IMG/VR virus record: IMGVR_UViG_3300035665_000143
Location: 1 to 35,215 of that record
DNA: 35,215 nt
Source: a virus
Strand: one strand, 5' to 3'
In this document: piece by piece, positions 147 through 25,936 of the stretch
How positions within the stretch are numbered: position 1 is the stretch's first letter
Layout of the letters: the number at the start of each line of letters is the position of its first letter
Translations under genes and position numbers: made by a program
The notes under the pieces: model-generated
The model's database searches: none
Told to the model about the DNA's origin: nothing
Seen by the model: the letters and a program-made list of their open reading frames with translations, nothing else

Positions 147-410
147 CTACTTGCCTCCTGCCCGCGTTCGGGCCTTCGCTGCGGGCTTGCGGTTGAGGAT
201 GGCGAAAACTTCGTGGGCGCAACGTTCTCGCATTCCTTGCATGCCGCGCACTTCTCGCATGTCAAACCTGTCGATTAGGTCGCCAAAAATCTGCCCCAGT
301 GTGCCCTGACTGTCCGCCCACTCCCTCACCAACCTCACCGTCTCCGCGTCGTGCGCGGCAGTATCAACTGCTGGCAACTTTCGGGATTTTGACAGGTCAC
401 GTTTGGGCAT
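147..410 (-). CDS. 87-residue charged protein of unknown function
   Basis: The ATG at 410-408 sits behind AAGGAGGGGGCA, a strong ribosome-binding site, and overlaps the end of the previous small gene. The product begins MPKRDLSKSRKLPAVDT, has a helical, acidic middle (GTLGQIFGDLIDRFDMREVRG) and a basic C-terminus (RKPAAKARTRAGGK). No catalytic motif is visible. A longer frame open upstream of this ATG is low-complexity Thr/Ser/Pro and is better explained as read-through of other genes. It is the second-last gene before the contig join in the early operon. Confidence 0.6.
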   Translation of the reverse strand: MPKRDLSKSRKLPAVDTAAHDAETVRLVREWADSQGTLGQIFGDLIDRFDMREVRGMQGMRERCAHEVFAILNRKPAAKARTRAGGK

Positions 411-12850: not shown

Positions 12851-13708
12851 CTAGTCGGTCCTTCGTGGGAACGCGGCGGTGGCGTCCCCGTGATTCATCG
12901 CGGCGGTTGTCGGGGCGATCGCGCGTACGGCAAGCTCGCCGTAGGGACCGATTTGCTTCATGGTGCAGTTGGCGGATGAGTACCAGAGAACGGCACCGTC
13001 GCACCCCAAGTCCCGCAGCGTCTTGATCTGCGTCTGCCAGAACTCCGGCGAGATAAGGCCGCGTCCGGCTGACGGGTGAATCTCAGGGCTGATGAACGGG
13101 ATGATCGGCAGGCCGATGCCATACGCACGCGCGAGCCTGCGGCACTCATCGACCTGCCAGCGTGCAAACCGCTGCCAGTGCTGGATGTTGGTGCTGTTGA
13201 CGTACAGGCTCGGGTGCAGCGTGTCGAAGCACTCAATCAGTTCCAACGCAAGGAAGTCGTTTGCGATCTGCGACCGGCGCAACTCGTTCGTGTCGTTGGT
13301 GATGACCGAGTTGAAGACGTTGAAGCCCGTGGGCAGAATGCCGTACAGCCCCACGGGTGCCGTCTCGCTGCCGGTGCGAACGTCGGCGATGACCTGACGG
13401 ATAAACGCACAGTCGTTGGAAATGTCACGCCCAACGTGAATGCGGGTGTCCGAACGCAGCGGGCGGTGAGCCTCGCCAATGCGATCGGCACGGCTTTCGA
13501 TGTTGACGACTACCAACGCGCCCGGTGAGAGCGTGGGCCACTTGCGGGCTTCTGCCGCGTCGTAGCGGGACACGTCACGCGCCCCGCCCGTGTTGGGCTT
13601 TACGGCGTAGAACCGCTGGCCGTCTACCAGAACGTCCACCATGCCCGACAGGGGCGCACGGGGCGTGAAGGGCCGATCGTGCGGGTACAGGCAGTCGTAG
13701 AGCTTCAC
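12851..13708 (-). CDS. TIM-barrel glycoside-hydrolase-like protein
   Basis: GTG at 13708-13706 overlaps the preceding stop as GTGA; an in-frame ATG farther up is not needed. The 285-residue product has alternating strands and helices consistent with a barrel: VVVNIESRADRIGEAHRP, VGLYGILPTGFNVF, HPSLYVNSTNIQHWQRFARW, IGLPIIPFISPEIHPSAGRG and CDGAVLWYSSAN. The P-I-I-P-F-x-x-P-E segment with later D-G-A-V-L-W resembles glycosidases with barrel-end carboxylates. It may degrade cell-surface polysaccharide, as part of the tail tip or as the lysin. No signal peptide is seen. Fold call is moderate, substrate unknown. Confidence 0.55.
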   Translation of the reverse strand: MKLYDCLYPHDRPFTPRAPLSGMVDVLVDGQRFYAVKPNTGGARDVSRYDAAEARKWPTLSPGALVVVNIESRADRIGEAHRPLRSDTRIHVGRDISNDCAFIRQVIADVRTGSETAPVGLYGILPTGFNVFNSVITNDTNELRRSQIANDFLALELIECFDTLHPSLYVNSTNIQHWQRFARWQVDECRRLARAYGIGLPIIPFISPEIHPSAGRGLISPEFWQTQIKTLRDLGCDGAVLWYSSANCTMKQIGPYGELAVRAIAPTTAAMNHGDATAAFPRRTD

Positions 13709-13962
13709 GGGGCTACCCAGTCCTTGAGCCGCTTGATGCACCCGCAGCCCGCGAACACGTCGGGGTCCGGGATGTTGACCGCTTCACCCGTTCGCATCGC
13801 CAGCACGATCGCGCGGGTAGCGATGATCCACAGCCGCAACGGGTACGGGATGCCGTACCAATCAACGCCGAGCCATGTCACGATGCCGTCCCGGTACGGA
13901 AGTCCGTACAGGGCCAGTGCCGCGCGGGTCGCGGGGTCGATGTTGGATTGGCAACCGCACAT
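13705..13962 (-). CDS. 85-residue Cys-containing tail-region protein
   Basis: ATG at 13962-13960 overlaps the previous TAA as TAATG. The product starts MCGCQSNIDPATRAALALYG, has a hydrophobic centre (VDWYGIPYPLRLWIIATRAIVLAM) and ends DVFAGCGCIKRLKDWVAP. Two Cys-x-Cys pairs frame it (C2/C4 and C-G-C near residue 74). Possibly a tail-tip component or membrane-interacting protein. No family known to me. Confidence 0.55.
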   Translation of the reverse strand: MCGCQSNIDPATRAALALYGLPYRDGIVTWLGVDWYGIPYPLRLWIIATRAIVLAMRTGEAVNIPDPDVFAGCGCIKRLKDWVAP

Positions 13963-20419: not shown

Positions 20420-20772
20420 TACGTGTTCCGCGAACAGAGAACGCGAATCATGCCGCCGTCACCTGCAGACACCGCACCCGAGCCGATGACCCGGTACGTG
20501 TTGCCGTTGAAAACGATCTTGTCCTGTGCGTTGACGACAACCGCCGTGCTGCCAACCGTGGGCGGAAGGAAGAACGTGTCTGTGACTTCGCCCATCTCAC
20601 GCCCGAGCCGGAGCGAATCCGAGTAGCCGGCCGGCTGATACCGACACGGAACCGCCGATAGGCCCGTCTTGGTGGCGAACGTGTACGCGGGCATGCCGTT
20701 CACCGCCGTACCCGCCGTGCCGTCGTGAATCGCGCACGTGCCGTTTGTCAGGTGGTACGGGAATCGGATCAT
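20419..20772 (-). CDS. Head closure / head-tail joining protein
   Basis: ATG at 20772-20770 overlaps the connector stop as ATGA. The 117-residue product (MIRFPYHLTNGTCAIHDGTA, ... FLPPTVGSTAVVVNAQDKIV, FNGNTYRVIGSGAVSAGDGG) is beta-rich, with a strand pattern like SPP1 gp16-type stoppers, ending with F-N-G-N-x-Y-R-V-I-G. Position after the gp6-like connector fits. Confidence 0.6.
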   Translation of the reverse strand: MIRFPYHLTNGTCAIHDGTAGTAVNGMPAYTFATKTGLSAVPCRYQPAGYSDSLRLGREMGEVTDTFFLPPTVGSTAVVVNAQDKIVFNGNTYRVIGSGAVSAGDGGMIRVLCSRNT

Positions 20773-21410
20773 GCCACGCTCACAATCCACTCTTGCAGGC
20801 GGTCACGCACTTCCTGCGAGATGAGGCCCGCCGCAGCCTCTTTCGTGTACGAGTAGTCGCCGATGCTCTCAGACTTCAGATCGCCAGGCACGCGGCGATC
20901 GGCGATCATCTGGTCAATCATCCGGTAGCAAACCCACTTGAGCCGGGACGGGACGGCTGCATACCCGCCCGTGTACGTCACCGTGTAGTTCTTCATGCCC
21001 TCAAGGAACTGCGGGCGTACGCCGGTCTGGTTGGGGGCGAAGTAGCCCTCAAAGCTGCCGTCCGTTGCCATGAGCGCCCGGCCCATCATGGAGCCGGTCA
21101 TGCAGACCGCACGCCCGCTGGGGTCGATCGCGTACCGCGACGAATCCAACGTCGATGACGTGCCGTCCGCGTCCACGAACGACACCGACGCAATAGCCGT
21201 GACCGGCCAATTGCGAAGGTACTTGCACGGCGTCTCGGCACCGCTAAACGTCTCGGTCCACGATGCGGACTCGAAACCTCCTGCGGATCGGCCACACAGC
21301 GATTCGATGGTGTCCTGCACCGCTGGAACAGCGACGGCCAGGAACGCATCGAATGATGTGTCAGAGATGCCAGCGTAATCCTTGTAGTTGGCACTTGTTA
21401 TCAACGCCAT
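20769..21410 (-). CDS. Head-tail connector (gp6/gp15-like)
   Basis: The 213-residue product starts MALITSANYKDYAGISDTSF, DAFLAVAVPAVQDTIESLCG, with N-terminal helices followed by FSGAETPCKYLRNWPVTAIA and SVSFVDADG, the usual pattern of phiE125 gp8/gp6-like connectors (L-x-x-x-P-V-x-x-V/I-x-S-V). The connector forms a ring under the portal. The ATG (21410-21408) lies 13 bases from the start of the divergent HNH gene. Confidence 0.7.
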   Translation of the reverse strand: MALITSANYKDYAGISDTSFDAFLAVAVPAVQDTIESLCGRSAGGFESASWTETFSGAETPCKYLRNWPVTAIASVSFVDADGTSSTLDSSRYAIDPSGRAVCMTGSMMGRALMATDGSFEGYFAPNQTGVRPQFLEGMKNYTVTYTGGYAAVPSRLKWVCYRMIDQMIADRRVPGDLKSESIGDYSYTKEAAAGLISQEVRDRLQEWIVSVA

Positions 21411-21423: not shown

Positions 21424-21966
21424 ATGGCAAAACCGAGCCGTTATTGGTACTACGACTGCGGCGATACTTGCCTTATCCCAATCCATCGCCGAGGCGGAAT
21501 AGTTTGTGGCTACGCACTGGTTGACACTGCGATCAAAGATCAATTTGTCTTGCGCGGTTGGACGATTTCCGGTGCCAATTACTTGTCGTCTGCGTCCAAA
21601 ACTGGACATCGCTTCCGCGACTACATGCACACAATCGCCATTGGCTCCGATGCTCCGATCGGCTACGAAATCGACCACGTCAACGGCGACAAGTGGGACA
21701 ACCGGCGATGCAACCTTCGCTTTGTAACCAAGTCAGAGAACCAACGAAACCGCGTCATTCAGCGGAACCGAAACCAGTACGGACGCGGCGTTTCGTTTGA
21801 CAAGCGGCGCGGAACGTTTATGGCCTATTGCCACTATCGCGGCAAGATGATCAACCTCGGAACGTTTGCCACTGCCGCCGACGCACGCCAGGCTGCTCGT
21901 GATGGACGCGCCAAGTACGGGTACCTGAACGTAAACGATTGGCTGAACGCACATCCAGCTGCCTGA
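21424..21966 (+). CDS. HNH endonuclease with C-terminal AP2-like domain
   Basis: The 180-residue protein shows a free-standing homing-endonuclease layout: N-terminal strand segment (CLIPIHRRGGIVCGYALVD), the HNH core YEIDHVNGDKWDNRRCNLRF (H85, N93 and N97 region) with VTKSENQRNR, then an AP2-type DNA-binding repeat (GVSFDKRRGTFMAYCHYRGK, MINLGTFATAADARQAA). It nicks or cuts DNA so that its own gene is copied into phages lacking it. It lies in a gap of the late operon, on the opposite strand, with its own promoter. It does not interrupt a recognisable gene. Confidence 0.88.
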   Translation: MAKPSRYWYYDCGDTCLIPIHRRGGIVCGYALVDTAIKDQFVLRGWTISGANYLSSASKTGHRFRDYMHTIAIGSDAPIGYEIDHVNGDKWDNRRCNLRFVTKSENQRNRVIQRNRNQYGRGVSFDKRRGTFMAYCHYRGKMINLGTFATAADARQAARDGRAKYGYLNVNDWLNAHPAA

Positions 21967-21976
21967 GTGCCATTGG

Positions 21977-22081
21977 TTACGCGGCTTTCGTGGTGCCTGC
22001 GGTCGCAATTAGGACGCGGGGCGTGCCCTTGTTCTTGATCTTGTCCGGCTTGACCTTCTTGTTCTTTGCGTTCTGTTTCAT
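21977..22081 (-). CDS. 34-residue lysine-rich peptide
   Basis: The minus-strand ATG at 22081-22079 encodes MKQNAKNKKVKPDKIKNKGT then PRVLIATAGTTKAA. The N-terminal half is lysine/asparagine-rich. It fills the gap between the three-domain enzyme and the HNH gene and follows the hairpin at 22087-22114. No convincing ribosome-binding site. Could bind nucleic acid or be a scaffold fragment. Short length keeps confidence low. Confidence 0.4.
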   Translation of the reverse strand: MKQNAKNKKVKPDKIKNKGTPRVLIATAGTTKAA

Positions 22082-22163: not shown

Positions 22164-23966
22164 CTACTGCCGCCGCTCGTCCGGTGGCCCGTAGTTGTTG
22201 TAGTTGTCCATGTACTGGTGATGCACCCGCATGTTCTCTGTCGGCCAACTAATCACGCTCTGGATGTGCCCGACGCTCACGCGGGTTGCAACGCACAGAC
22301 GGTTGCCAACCTCGCGGAACTTCTTCCAGAAATAGATGTCGTCGTCGGTTCGGCCCTCGCCCCACTTGTTCTCTGCGTTCGGCTGTGCCCAGAACCACGG
22401 GTGCGGCATCTTCTTCAACGCCGACACGCGGATCAGCGTGCATCCAAAGTGCGCCATCGTTGCGTCAAACAGCGGGCCGATCAGTTCCTTTGCGCCAGCC
22501 GCCTTGTCAGACGCGACCAGCATGAAGTCACGCCCGCGACCAACCTGGAGCGGAGCGATCGCGTCCACGTCGGGGTTCGCGTCCATGAGCATGAACAGCC
22601 GCCCGAGGACGTTGGAATCGAAGATCGTGTCGTAGTCCACCGCAAGGATGAACTCGGTCCCGTCGTTGCGGTTGGCGATGCGGTCCATCGCACGCTCAAG
22701 GCATTGGCCCCAGAACGCGCCCGTCTCCATGTCCCACGGGATTTGGTGCCTGCGGAAGACTTCCTCACAGCATCGGGCCGTGTCGGTGAACAAGATGCGG
22801 GGCACGCTCATAACCGCCCGCGTCTTGCGTGACATCTCCTGAAGGTTCAGCGACGGCTTGTAGCCCTCAAGGTTCAGCGACACCGACAGGGATGAGCACT
22901 CGTTCGGGATGTCTGCTTTCCATCGGTCGATGCCAACCAGCCCCGCCCGTTGCATCATCACGAACAAGCCGCCGTAATCGAACATCGATTTGTGGTAGTC
23001 GTTCGCGTCGGTCTGTCCGCCAAAGGTCACGTTCTGCACGCCGAACTCGGACACCCGCTTGCCGTCGTAAACCTCCACCAACTTGCCGAAGTCAGGCACG
23101 GCAATACGGATGCGTCCGCCGGGCTTCAGCACCCGCACCCACTCGTTCAGAACGTCCTGCGTCTGCGTGTGCGAGAAATGCTCAAGGATGTGCGAGGCCC
23201 GAATCTCATCGACGCTGGCATCGTCGTAGTCGAGCGGGTACGCCTCCGTTCCGTTGTTGCGGTCGATGTTCGTGAAGCCGTCAATCTTGATGTCGTATGA
23301 GCCGATGTTTAGCCGGATCGGGTCTTTGCCTGCGGGCGTTCGCTTGCGCTCCAGCCGCCCCGCAAGGTCGCTGCGGACATACAGACCGTTGATCCGCCCA
23401 ACCCACACCGGCACGTACCCAGCCGCCGCCATGCTCTCAGCCACGGCAACGCTGTTGGCCTGCTTCGTAAACTCGCGGTCGGTCCTTTCGCCAACGCGGA
23501 CGGGTCGAGCTGCCGCACGCGGGTTGTTGTCGTCGCCCTCGTCCCAATGTTCAATCAGGAACGCGGCGGGCTTTGACTTGATCGCCAACGCCAGGTCAAG
23601 GTCGTTCGCGTCAACGTCAATCACCACAAGCGTTGGCGGTTCTCCAAACGCTTTGTCTACTACGTCGATCGTCTCGGGCGTCACACGCTGCGCGACCACT
23701 TCCGCAGACGGGTAGCGGTTCGCCAGCGCCTTCGCAGCCTCCGTGTCTTCCTCAATCAGCCGGGCCTTCCACCCCGCGTCAATCAAAGGGCCGGTCAGGA
23801 CCGGCAGACGCAACCCATCCCCAGCCCCAAACTCGACACACGTTTTCGGCTGGTCGTGCAGGGCAGAGACGACGCGGGCCAGAACGCCCCGCTCGCCGAA
23901 CTGCCACCCATCCTCGTGTGCGATAAGCCAACGAAACTCCGGCGCAACCTTTGTGCGATAATCCAC
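22164..23966 (-). CDS. Three-domain enzyme: two methyltransferase-like domains plus glycosyltransferase
   Basis: GTG at 23966-23964 follows AAAGGAGG. The 600 residues divide into: (1) about 1-205, Rossmann-type FkbM-like methyltransferase with TCVEFGAGDGLRLP (44-51) and LIEED; (2) about 215-385, a second class-I methyltransferase-like domain with IRLNIGSYDIKIDGFTNIDR (219-236), ASHILEHF (257-264), LKPGGRIRIAVPDFG; (3) about 388-590, a GT-A/GT2-like domain with LAVDYDTIFD (444-447 acidic motif), FGCTLIRVSAL and GRTDDDIYFWKKF (541-543). It likely glycosylates and methylates a surface structure, either virion proteins or host glycans. It sits amid head genes after a terminator. Substrate unknown. 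Confidence 0.75.
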   Translation of the reverse strand: MDYRTKVAPEFRWLIAHEDGWQFGERGVLARVVSALHDQPKTCVEFGAGDGLRLPVLTGPLIDAGWKARLIEEDTEAAKALANRYPSAEVVAQRVTPETIDVVDKAFGEPPTLVVIDVDANDLDLALAIKSKPAAFLIEHWDEGDDNNPRAAARPVRVGERTDREFTKQANSVAVAESMAAAGYVPVWVGRINGLYVRSDLAGRLERKRTPAGKDPIRLNIGSYDIKIDGFTNIDRNNGTEAYPLDYDDASVDEIRASHILEHFSHTQTQDVLNEWVRVLKPGGRIRIAVPDFGKLVEVYDGKRVSEFGVQNVTFGGQTDANDYHKSMFDYGGLFVMMQRAGLVGIDRWKADIPNECSSLSVSLNLEGYKPSLNLQEMSRKTRAVMSVPRILFTDTARCCEEVFRRHQIPWDMETGAFWGQCLERAMDRIANRNDGTEFILAVDYDTIFDSNVLGRLFMLMDANPDVDAIAPLQVGRGRDFMLVASDKAAGAKELIGPLFDATMAHFGCTLIRVSALKKMPHPWFWAQPNAENKWGEGRTDDDIYFWKKFREVGNRLCVATRVSVGHIQSVISWPTENMRVHHQYMDNYNNYGPPDERRQ

Positions 23967-23987
23967 GATTCCTCCTTTGCGAGAAAA

Positions 23988-24022: not shown

Positions 24023-24490
24023 TTATCCGGCAGCGGTCACGCGAGTGACGACGCCAGCCTCGGCAGCCGTGGACGGAATCTCATCCGCGCGGAAGCCAAA
24101 GCCGATGACGCTGGTCGTGTTGTAACCAGTCGGACCCTGCACAACGACGCGGTAGTAACGGTCACGGGGCACAAAGTTAAACTCCGCGATGTAGTTCAAG
24201 TTCGTGTTGTTGTTGCCCGCAATCACGAACTGCGAGGTGTTCGTGGTCGAGGTGTTGGTGGTGCCCTGGAACTGAGTCACCCAGCCCGCGTTCGACGCGC
24301 TGGAGTATTCCAGAGTCAACGAATCGAACTTGGCGCTGGCGTTGGTGGCGGTCGCGGCAGCGGCAATGACGTACATCTTGCCAGCCTTGTAGCCGTTCAT
24401 GTCAAACGCAGCAGACGACGCCGTGGCGTTGGTCGCCGCGCTCGTCGCCAACCGAAGAATCTGAATGTTCTCATTCTGTCCGCAAATCAT
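24023..24490 (-). CDS. Probable head decoration / accessory capsid protein
   Basis: The 155-residue product follows the major capsid gene with its own site (GGAGGAG at nine bases). It is an alanine/threonine/asparagine-rich beta protein (KMYVIAAAATATNASAKFDS, LTLEYSSASNAGWVTQFQGT, NLNYIAEFNFVPRDRYYRVV) ending VVTRVTAAG. Small beta proteins next to HK97-type capsid genes often trimerise on the shell. The strong terminator behind it marks the end of a high-expression unit. Confidence 0.55.
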   Translation of the reverse strand: MICGQNENIQILRLATSAATNATASSAAFDMNGYKAGKMYVIAAAATATNASAKFDSLTLEYSSASNAGWVTQFQGTTNTSTTNTSQFVIAGNNNTNLNYIAEFNFVPRDRYYRVVVQGPTGYNTTSVIGFGFRADEIPSTAAEAGVVTRVTAAG

Positions 24491-24526: not shown

Positions 24527-25936
24527 TTAGTTACCGAGGGCGAGGATCGGGCCGTAGGTCGCAGCGCGGCCGTCAAGGTGGATGTTGATCGCGTACCGCA
24601 TTGTGCCGCGCCACGCCAGAAGGCCGTTGGCAAAGCCGTAATGCTCGCTATACATGATCTTCAGTTCATCGCGGAGGCCGATCTTGCTGCCGCCAGCAAA
24701 GTCACCGATGAACACGCCGGGGGTGGCGGCGGTGGTTTCGGGAGCCGTCTGGCCTTCCCAAAGAACCTGCGCAAAGTGGTACGGGAGCGAGAGGAACGAC
24801 TTGTCAGCGCCCTCAACGCCGGGGCCAACCAACTGCGAAAACTGATTCGTGTTGGTCTGGAGGCGATTGGGAGCTGCGTAGAAGTTCTGACGCGAACCGA
24901 TCATGCGGAGGCGAGCCGAGTTGACGAACTCCAAGCGGCCAATGGCCTTGTTGAAGTCAGCCGAGGTCCAGCCCGACCACGCGCCGCCGGCGGCCTGCAC
25001 GTACTTGTTGCCCGACGTGCCGAGCTTCGTCTTGAGACCGATGAAGTTGTTGTACGCGCTGGTGCCGTCGCCGAGGAAGTAATCAAGGTCGATGCGGCGG
25101 GCGGCAGACTCAGCGAAGTTGCGGGCGAACGTATCGCCGACGTTAACAGCCGAGTCCTCGTACCACTGATACGAAGCCTGCTTGATGAGCGAGGCTTCGC
25201 GGCAGGTGAGGGTCACGCTGTCGAAGGTGTCGTCAGCCGTGGACTTGACCGCACCTTCCGCCGAGGGCGTCATGGGCTGAATAACGGTCTGACGCGGGAA
25301 GTTGCCAACGTCGCTGGTCATGCGCTCGACCGAAGCGACCTTGAGGGCAACGCCGTACTGCTCAGTCAACCAGATAAGCTGGTTCGAAAACTGCTGCGGA
25401 ACGGTCGCGCCGCCGAGGGTGTTGTCGAACTCAACGTTGGCCTTGCCAATGATTTCAAGGTCGGTGGCCTTTTCCGAGTAGCTCGTGCCAGGATTGGTGC
25501 TCGCCAAACGGAAAAACGCGGTGAAGGCTTCGGCGGTTTCGCCGTCCTCCCAAATCGCACGCTTCTCGATGGGCGTATCAACCGACTGGTTACGGGCGCG
25601 GGCGGTGTACGCCTTGACAGCGCGTTCACGGTCAGAGCGGATCGCGGGAGCGCCAATCACACCCTTGCTTTCGACCTTGCCAACGGTGTTGGCGTAGCCG
25701 GTGGACGCCTTCTTGGTGGGCTTGACGATGACGGGCTCATCGGCCTCGGCGTCCACCTTGGCGCTCAGGGGAGCCGCCTTAGCGAACACGTCGTCGATCT
25801 TGTACGTCTCGTCGTTGATGGTGATGCTGTCGGAATCTCGGCCTTCGTTGGCGAGATACTGCTTGATTTCGGCGAGGTCAGCCTTGCCGGTGTAGCCCGC
25901 AGCGGTCAAGGCTGCGAGCAGTTGCTTGCGATTCAT
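24527..25936 (-). CDS. Major capsid protein, HK97 fold
   Basis: The 469-residue product has an N-terminal charged delta-type region (about 1-150, MNRKQLLAALTAAGYTGKAD with acidic and lysine stretches) that the protease would remove, then the HK97-fold core beginning near NTLGGATVPQQFSNQLIWLT (about 172-192). Core features include REASLIKQASYQWYEDSAVN, FAESAARRIDLDYFLGDGTS, the insertion with TNQFSQLVGPGVEGADKSFL and the end GLLAWRGTMRYAINIHLDGR. It assembles the icosahedral shell. A 147-base leader with two 12-bp repeats precedes it. Confidence 0.88.
   Translation of the reverse strand: MNRKQLLAALTAAGYTGKADLAEIKQYLANEGRDSDSITINDETYKIDDVFAKAAPLSAKVDAEADEPVIVKPTKKASTGYANTVGKVESKGVIGAPAIRSDRERAVKAYTARARNQSVDTPIEKRAIWEDGETAEAFTAFFRLASTNPGTSYSEKATDLEIIGKANVEFDNTLGGATVPQQFSNQLIWLTEQYGVALKVASVERMTSDVGNFPRQTVIQPMTPSAEGAVKSTADDTFDSVTLTCREASLIKQASYQWYEDSAVNVGDTFARNFAESAARRIDLDYFLGDGTSAYNNFIGLKTKLGTSGNKYVQAAGGAWSGWTSADFNKAIGRLEFVNSARLRMIGSRQNFYAAPNRLQTNTNQFSQLVGPGVEGADKSFLSLPYHFAQVLWEGQTAPETTAATPGVFIGDFAGGSKIGLRDELKIMYSEHYGFANGLLAWRGTMRYAINIHLDGRAATYGPILALGN

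What the first reader, a model, noticed from the sequence alone, without database searches (positions are those of the whole stretch)
22164..23966. Fused methyltransferase-methyltransferase-glycosyltransferase among head genes
One 600-residue chain combines an FkbM-like domain (VEFGAGDG), a second SAM-binding domain (LNIGSYD...HILEHF) and a GT-A-like domain (DYDT, DDD). Such a trio could build a methylated sugar on capsid or tail protein, masking virions or changing adsorption, or alter host glycans to block superinfection. Location immediately after the capsid/decoration unit, separated by a strong terminator, suggests lower, catalytic expression and a virion substrate. This is the strongest candidate for an undescribed system in the window.
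Basis: partly seen in the sequence, partly recalled or inferred. Interest (0 to 1): 0.8.

Follow-up and report, generated by a model that had tools for sequence, protein, structure and literature searches.

The report
Phage sugar-adding enzyme beside capsid genes
An uncultured bacterial virus carries, right after its shell genes, an enzyme that probably attaches a sugar to a small Ser/Thr/Asn-rich shell-associated protein and may cap the sugar with a methyl group; over 200 related contigs share the arrangement but no sequenced isolate does, so a glycan-coated phage group may have gone unstudied.

Summary
The 600-aa ORF is real, on the minus strand (23966..22164, GTG start, GGAGG), and under purifying selection in all three domains (88 synonymous vs 10 non-synonymous changes against the nearest relative). 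Domain 3 is a GT-A glycosyltransferase: the DxD, second Asp pair and metal-type His are invariant in 159 distinct relatives, and the best structural match is STIV A197 (Z 18.6), an essential viral glycosyltransferase proposed to glycosylate that virus's coat. Domain 2 is methyltransferase-like, but its SAM motif is broken here (LNIGSYD) and it is eroded or absent in most relatives, so it is probably not catalytic. Domain 1 resembles FkbM methyltransferases only remotely. Undoubted FkbM genes, and another methyltransferase type, have joined the same spot in other phages. The gene belongs to a cassette: major capsid, small all-beta protein ('DECO'), glycosyltransferase, head-tail connector. Sampling by DECO, 76 of 76 readable loci have the glycosyltransferase next; sampling by capsid, 49 have both, 16 DECO alone, none glycosyltransferase alone. 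DECO loops are richer in Ser/Thr/Asn when the glycosyltransferase is present. Best reading: virion glycosylation, probably of DECO, with optional methyl capping. The principle is known from mycobacteriophages; this family, partner and clade were not found described.

The parts
22164..23966 (-). 600-aa fused ORF: FkbM-like domain + degenerate methyltransferase-like domain + GT-A glycosyltransferase
   Evidence: Open frame, GTG start with GGAGG; purifying selection; AF2 mean pLDDT 84.5
23971..23975 (-). Shine-Dalgarno GGAGG, 4 bases before the GTG start
   Evidence: Sequence read directly
23337..23966 (-). Domain 1 (residues ~1-210), FkbM-like Rossmann methyltransferase, motif VEFGAGDG
   Evidence: Found only in the window lineage and in contigs L002 and L007; similarity to FkbM-like neighbour gene of L091; no Pfam family
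22851..23327 (-). Domain 2 (residues ~214-372), COG4627/Methyltransf_11-like domain with broken SAM motif I
   Evidence: PF08241 32.3 bits; structural match 7pd7 Z 13.5 over 214..372; architecture survey
23292..23312 (-). Motif I of domain 2, LNIGSYD (residues 219-225), second Gly lost
   Evidence: Relatives L007/L008 read LNIGGG
22164..22841 (-). Domain 3 (residues ~376-600), GT-A glycosyltransferase
   Evidence: Best structural match STIV A197 Z 18.6, then LH3, mimivirus R699, B4GALNT1, COLGALT1
22629..22637 (-). DxD motif D444-Y445-D446
   Evidence: D444 and D446 invariant in 159 distinct relatives
22338..22346 (-). D541-D542-D543, probable catalytic base region
   Evidence: D541 and D543 invariant in 159
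22266..22268 (-). H567, probable third metal ligand
   Evidence: Invariant in 159
24023..24490 (-). DECO: small all-beta, Ser/Thr/Asn-rich (30%) protein, proposed acceptor
   Evidence: Partner gene in nearly all GT loci and 76/76 readable DECO-sampled loci; model pLDDT 72, beta-sandwich
24527..25936 (-). Major capsid protein (HK97 type)
   Evidence: PF05065 E 6e-21; phrog_10
20769..21410 (-). Head-tail connector, downstream border of the cassette
   Evidence: phrog_442 head-tail adaptor E 3e-27
21977..22081 (-). 34-aa basic small ORF between GT and connector
   Evidence: Identical in L002 and L008
23990..24007 (-). Stem-loop between DECO and the fused ORF
   Evidence: not more than shuffled sequence gives

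Best explanation
The ORF is a virion-protein glycosyltransferase of an uncultured temperate tailed phage. Its C-terminal GT-A domain transfers a sugar, from a host nucleotide-sugar pool, to a particle protein made at the same time, most likely the small Ser/Thr/Asn-rich beta-sandwich protein (DECO) encoded immediately upstream after the capsid gene. Domain 1 probably O-methylates the attached sugar (FkbM-type). Domain 2 is a worn-out methyltransferase fold that most likely survives as a structural or docking module. The sugar coat would shield or tune the particle surface. Shown: the cassette and its conservation, the GT-A fold (predicted) with invariant catalytic residues, purifying selection, loss of the SAM motif in domain 2. 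Inferred: acceptor, donor, linkage (O or N), methylation and biological purpose.
For: GT-A model with best match STIV A197 (Z 18.6, 161 residues) and protein glycosyltransferases LH3, R699, COLGALT1; invariant R390, D444, D446, R477, H506, G508, D541, D543, W547, H567. Capsid-DECO-GT-connector order in nearly all of 88 GT-sampled loci; DECO-sampled 76/76 readable loci carry GT next; capsid-sampled 49 DECO+GT, 16 DECO only, 0 GT only. DECO S+T+N 27-28% with GT against 23% without, concentrated in the loops at window residues 15-22 (3.2 vs 0.9) and 44-56 (5.0 vs 1.5). FkbM genes (PF05050 E 2e-16, 2e-12) and Methyltransf_9-like genes sit between DECO and GT, or fused to GT, in other members. No transmembrane segment. 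All domains under purifying selection. Literature precedent: mycobacteriophage capsid/tail-tube glycans with GT and O-methyltransferase genes (PMC11600133, PMC12619734); A197 essential in STIV (PMC10551542).
Against: No glycan, virion or enzyme data exist. DECO's place on the particle is inferred from gene order, fold and co-conservation, not shown; fold matches are weak (best Z 8.6). All loci belong to one broad capsid clade, so conserved synteny partly reflects shared descent; GT absence needs three changes at most on the capsid tree and possibly one, so the DECO composition contrast rests on few independent events. Domain 1 fails the Pfam FkbM model. The GT domain does not reach Pfam cut-offs for GT2 families.
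Confidence: 0.6

Rival explanations
1. The enzyme glycosylates another virion protein (capsid, connector or tail subunit); DECO is only a neighbour, or even a lectin-like reader of the glycan.
For: In mycobacteriophages the acceptors are capsid and tail-tube C-termini (PMC12619734). DECO also exists without GT in 16 loci, so DECO has a role of its own; its weak structural neighbours include carbohydrate-binding modules.
Against: No GT without DECO in 65 readable capsid-sampled loci; Ser/Thr/Asn enrichment in DECO loops only when GT is present.
Confidence: 0.22
2. The enzyme alters host surface glycans to block superinfection or change serotype.
For: Phage glycosyltransferases with this role exist (general knowledge of Gtr seroconversion cassettes; mentioned in PMC12619734); the phage is temperate, with integrase and repressor.
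Against: No membrane segment and no flippase-like partner seen beside it; fixed position inside the head gene block, not near the integrase; linked to a small presumed structural protein.
Confidence: 0.06
3. The enzyme modifies phage DNA.
For: Phage glycosyltransferases often act on modified bases (mentioned in PMC12619734).
Against: No base-modifying genes among the replication ORFs tested; linked to DECO rather than to DNA genes; the closest structures are viral, protein or glycan glycosyltransferases.
Confidence: 0.04
4. Domain 2 is still an active methyltransferase here despite LNIGSYD, so two different methylations occur.
For: Purifying selection on domain 2 (dN/dS 0.34 vs L007, 0.04 vs L002); the D of NID and HILEHF are kept.
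Against: Motif I glycine lost in the window lineage; the domain is reduced to its C-terminal part in about 54 of 215 loci and absent in 111 without loss of the GT.
Confidence: 0.15

Closest known systems
Mycobacteriophage virion glycosylation (Freeman et al. 2023; cluster O GT trio plus O-methyltransferase, PMC11600133)
   Same: Phage-encoded glycosyltransferases with a methyltransferase gene acting on capsid/tail-tube proteins
   Different: There, several separate genes act on capsid/tail subunits (PMC11600133, PMC11256854); no close sequence relative of this GT, DECO or capsid was found in 50,697 phage records. Here one fused enzyme sits in the head gene block beside a dedicated small partner gene.
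STIV A197 (archaeal virus glycosyltransferase, PDB 2c0n)
   Same: Minimal GT-A fold, DxD and catalytic Asp; viral; proposed coat glycosylation, essential for the virus
   Different: Stand-alone 197-aa enzyme of an unrelated virus, 16% identity, no methyltransferase domains
Mimivirus R699 / human LH3 and COLGALT1 collagen glycosyltransferases
   Same: GT-A fold at Z 14-18; act on protein-linked acceptors
   Different: Collagen hydroxylysine acceptors; 10-17% identity
FkbM methyltransferases (PF05050)
   Same: Motif pattern VEFGA.DG and IDVD; undoubted FkbM genes sit in the same place in L183 and L218
   Different: Domain 1 itself does not match PF05050
phrog_1574 and phrog_5707
   Same: Distant PHROG matches of the GT (E 6e-7 in L011) and DECO (E 2e-8 in L004)
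   Different: Both annotated 'unknown function'

Membership tests
GT-A fold glycosyltransferases | Rossmann-like GT-A fold | tested here: met
   Z 18.6 to 2c0n, rmsd 2.4, 161 aligned; many GT-A chains at Z 13-17
GT-A fold glycosyltransferases | DxD motif and acidic base | tested here: met
   D444, D446, D541, D543 invariant in 159 relatives
GT-A fold glycosyltransferases | Sugar-nucleotide-dependent transfer | not testable with these tools
   Needs an enzyme assay
Pfam GT2 (PF00535 / PF13632) | Score above curated cut-off | tested here: not met
   No hit for the window protein; relatives reach 20.2 of 23.3 and 23.2 of 27 bits
FkbM methyltransferase (PF05050) for domain 1 | Match to the PF05050 profile | tested here: not met
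   No PF05050 hit up to E 10
FkbM methyltransferase (PF05050) for domain 1 | SAM motif (E/D)xGAxxG and acidic IDxD | tested here: met
   VEFGAGDG and IDVD, kept in L007; aligned with the L091 neighbour gene
Methyltransf_11 / COG4627-like for domain 2 | Profile match | tested here: met
   32.3 bits against 21.2, C-terminal half only
Methyltransf_11 / COG4627-like for domain 2 | Intact motif I GxG for SAM | tested here: not met
   LNIGSYD; relatives LNIGGG/LNLGAG
Mycobacteriophage-type virion glycosylation | Glycan covalently on capsid/tail subunits | not testable with these tools
   No virions available
Mycobacteriophage-type virion glycosylation | Homologous glycosyltransferase genes | tested here: not met
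   No full-length relative in 50,697 GenBank phage records; mycobacteriophages were not queried one by one
Capsid decoration proteins (for DECO) | Binds the capsid exterior | not testable with these tools
   Only gene order and beta-sandwich model

The most novel reading that the evidence does not exclude
A broad, so far uncultured clade of tailed phages makes a glycan-coated particle as a normal trait: a dedicated decoration-like protein and its own GT-A enzyme form a cassette after the capsid gene, and different methyltransferases (FkbM, Methyltransf_9, COG4627 types) have been added, fused or worn down independently to vary the sugar cap.
Probability: 0.42. Interest if true: 0.75.

Novelty: new variant of a known kind. 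Interest (0 to 1): 0.6.

Why it matters
Virion glycosylation in phages has been shown in few systems, mainly mycobacteriophages. Here a presumed structural protein and an enzyme occur as a genetic pair in hundreds of environmental phage contigs with three kinds of optional methyltransferase, which makes enzyme, acceptor and cap testable by co-expressing two genes. It also warns that methyltransferase-like domains in such fusions may be dead scaffolds.

Tried and rejected
D1 relatives: the A5 scan of viral contigs gave only the L002 and L007 contigs, so D1 is a rare add-on. The first idea that DECO and GT are obligate partners (76/76) was softened after the capsid-seeded control found 16 DECO loci without GT. 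DECO alignment A3 was too divergent to scan. Isolate-phage searches with GT, DECO, D1, capsid and the head-region DNA gave no close match. Terminator and promoter scans were no better than shuffles. The SGNH-hydrolase guess for the 585-aa DECO-like proteins was not confirmed by Pfam. hhalign of D1 against neighbouring FkbM genes was inconclusive (38% probability, 35 columns).

Full report
What is there. The window is a 35,215-base linear virus record of a temperate tailed phage: integrase, repressor, RecT, SSB, RusA, portal, terminase and HK97-type capsid were recognised. The finding is one open frame of 600 codons on the minus strand, 23966 down to 22164, starting at GTG after GGAGG. It is a real gene: against its nearest relative (L002) there are 88 synonymous and 10 non-synonymous changes, and against L007 dN/dS is 0.24, 0.34 and 0.15 for the three domains. 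It has no membrane segment and the base composition of its neighbours.

The domains. Domain 3 (about 376-600) is a GT-A glycosyltransferase. AlphaFold gives pLDDT around 90 there and the best structural match is A197 of the archaeal virus STIV (Z 18.6, 161 residues, rmsd 2.4), followed by the collagen glycosyltransferase LH3, mimivirus R699, B4GALNT1 and COLGALT1. D444, D446, D541, D543, H506, H567, R390 and R477 are invariant in 159 distinct family members. Domain 2 (about 214-372) has a methyltransferase fold, but its SAM motif reads LNIGSYD where L007 and L008 read LNIGGG. Among 215 GT loci, 34 keep a full domain with GxG, 5 entries (3 of them the same L002 contig) have it full length but altered, about 54 keep only a C-terminal remnant, 9 have a Methyltransf_9-type domain instead and 111 have no such domain (counts include near-duplicate contigs). 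Domain 2 is therefore probably a structural leftover here. Domain 1 (1-210) is FkbM-like by motif, with no convincing Pfam match and modest similarity to an FkbM-like neighbour gene of L091; it was found only in this lineage.

The cassette. A GT-domain profile found 401 relatives in IMG/VR, of which 80 were kept, and 4 contigs in genome assemblies, but only short weak matches in 50,697 phage records. In nearly all 88 loci the order is capsid, DECO, GT, connector. DECO is 130-160 residues, all-beta in the model (pLDDT 72), with no clear solved relative (best Z 8.6, YomS). Loci sampled through DECO alone carry the GT directly downstream in 76 of 76 cases with enough sequence; 5 are cut. Loci sampled through the capsid show DECO+GT 49, DECO without GT 16, GT without DECO 0. 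So DECO is the core and the GT a common, dependent companion. The tree of capsids needs three changes of GT presence at most and does not exclude one.

Why DECO is the likely acceptor. DECO is 30% Ser/Thr/Asn in the window. Where the GT is present DECO has more S+T+N (0.27-0.28 against 0.23) and fewer acidic residues. The excess sits in two loops, window residues 15-22 (3.2 against 0.9 residues) and 44-56 (5.0 against 1.5). The p values are small but the sequences are related, and only one to three independent events stand behind the contrast, so this is suggestive.

Why methylation is plausible. Between DECO and GT, L183 and L218 carry FkbM genes (PF05050 E 2e-16 and 2e-12), L091 an FkbM-like gene, L003 a Methyltransf_9-type gene; L103 has a fused COG4627-like plus Methyltransf_9-like gene there, and L005, L059, L068 and others have the Methyltransf_9 type fused to the GT. 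Repeated recruitment to one spot argues that a methyl cap goes with the sugar.

Mechanism proposed. The GT domain takes a host nucleotide sugar and glycosylates DECO, or less likely another particle protein; domain 1 then O-methylates the sugar. No sugar-nucleotide pathway gene was recognised among the window proteins scanned, so the donor would be the host's, as proposed for STIV (PMC10551542). Shielding, stability or adsorption are possible purposes and cannot be separated here.

Comparison. Mycobacteriophage virions carry glycans on capsid and tail-tube subunits, made by glycosyltransferase genes accompanied by an O-methyltransferase gene in cluster O (PMC11600133, PMC12619734). This works like that system, but is not a homologous member by the searches made. 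STIV A197 is the nearest solved structure and is essential in its virus (PMC10551542). I found no paper describing this family, within an open-access library only.

Limits.

Noticed in passing
L044:4202-5959, also L047, L049-L052: A second DECO-like ORF of 574-585 aa with a large domain inserted in the beta-sandwich, directly before the GT; GDSN and DTLH motifs suggest an SGNH-type esterase, but Pfam shows nothing.
   Followed up: partly
window 21424-21966 (+): HNH endonuclease gene inserted antisense between the fused ORF and the connector; absent in L002, so probably a recent mobile insertion.
   Followed up: partly
window 21977-22081 (-): 34-aa basic ORF identical in L002 and L008 although the L008 GT is only about 54% identical; other relatives have a different ~70-aa protein with a basic tail in this gap.
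   Followed up: partly
window 12851-13741 (-): 296-aa protein with a sub-threshold hyaluronidase-like (PF01630, E 6e-5) match downstream of the tail genes.
   Followed up: no
L011, L029, L044 and others: Methyltransferase domain worn down to its C-terminal half yet still fused to the GT; a series of domain decay whose structural reason is unknown.
   Followed up: partly
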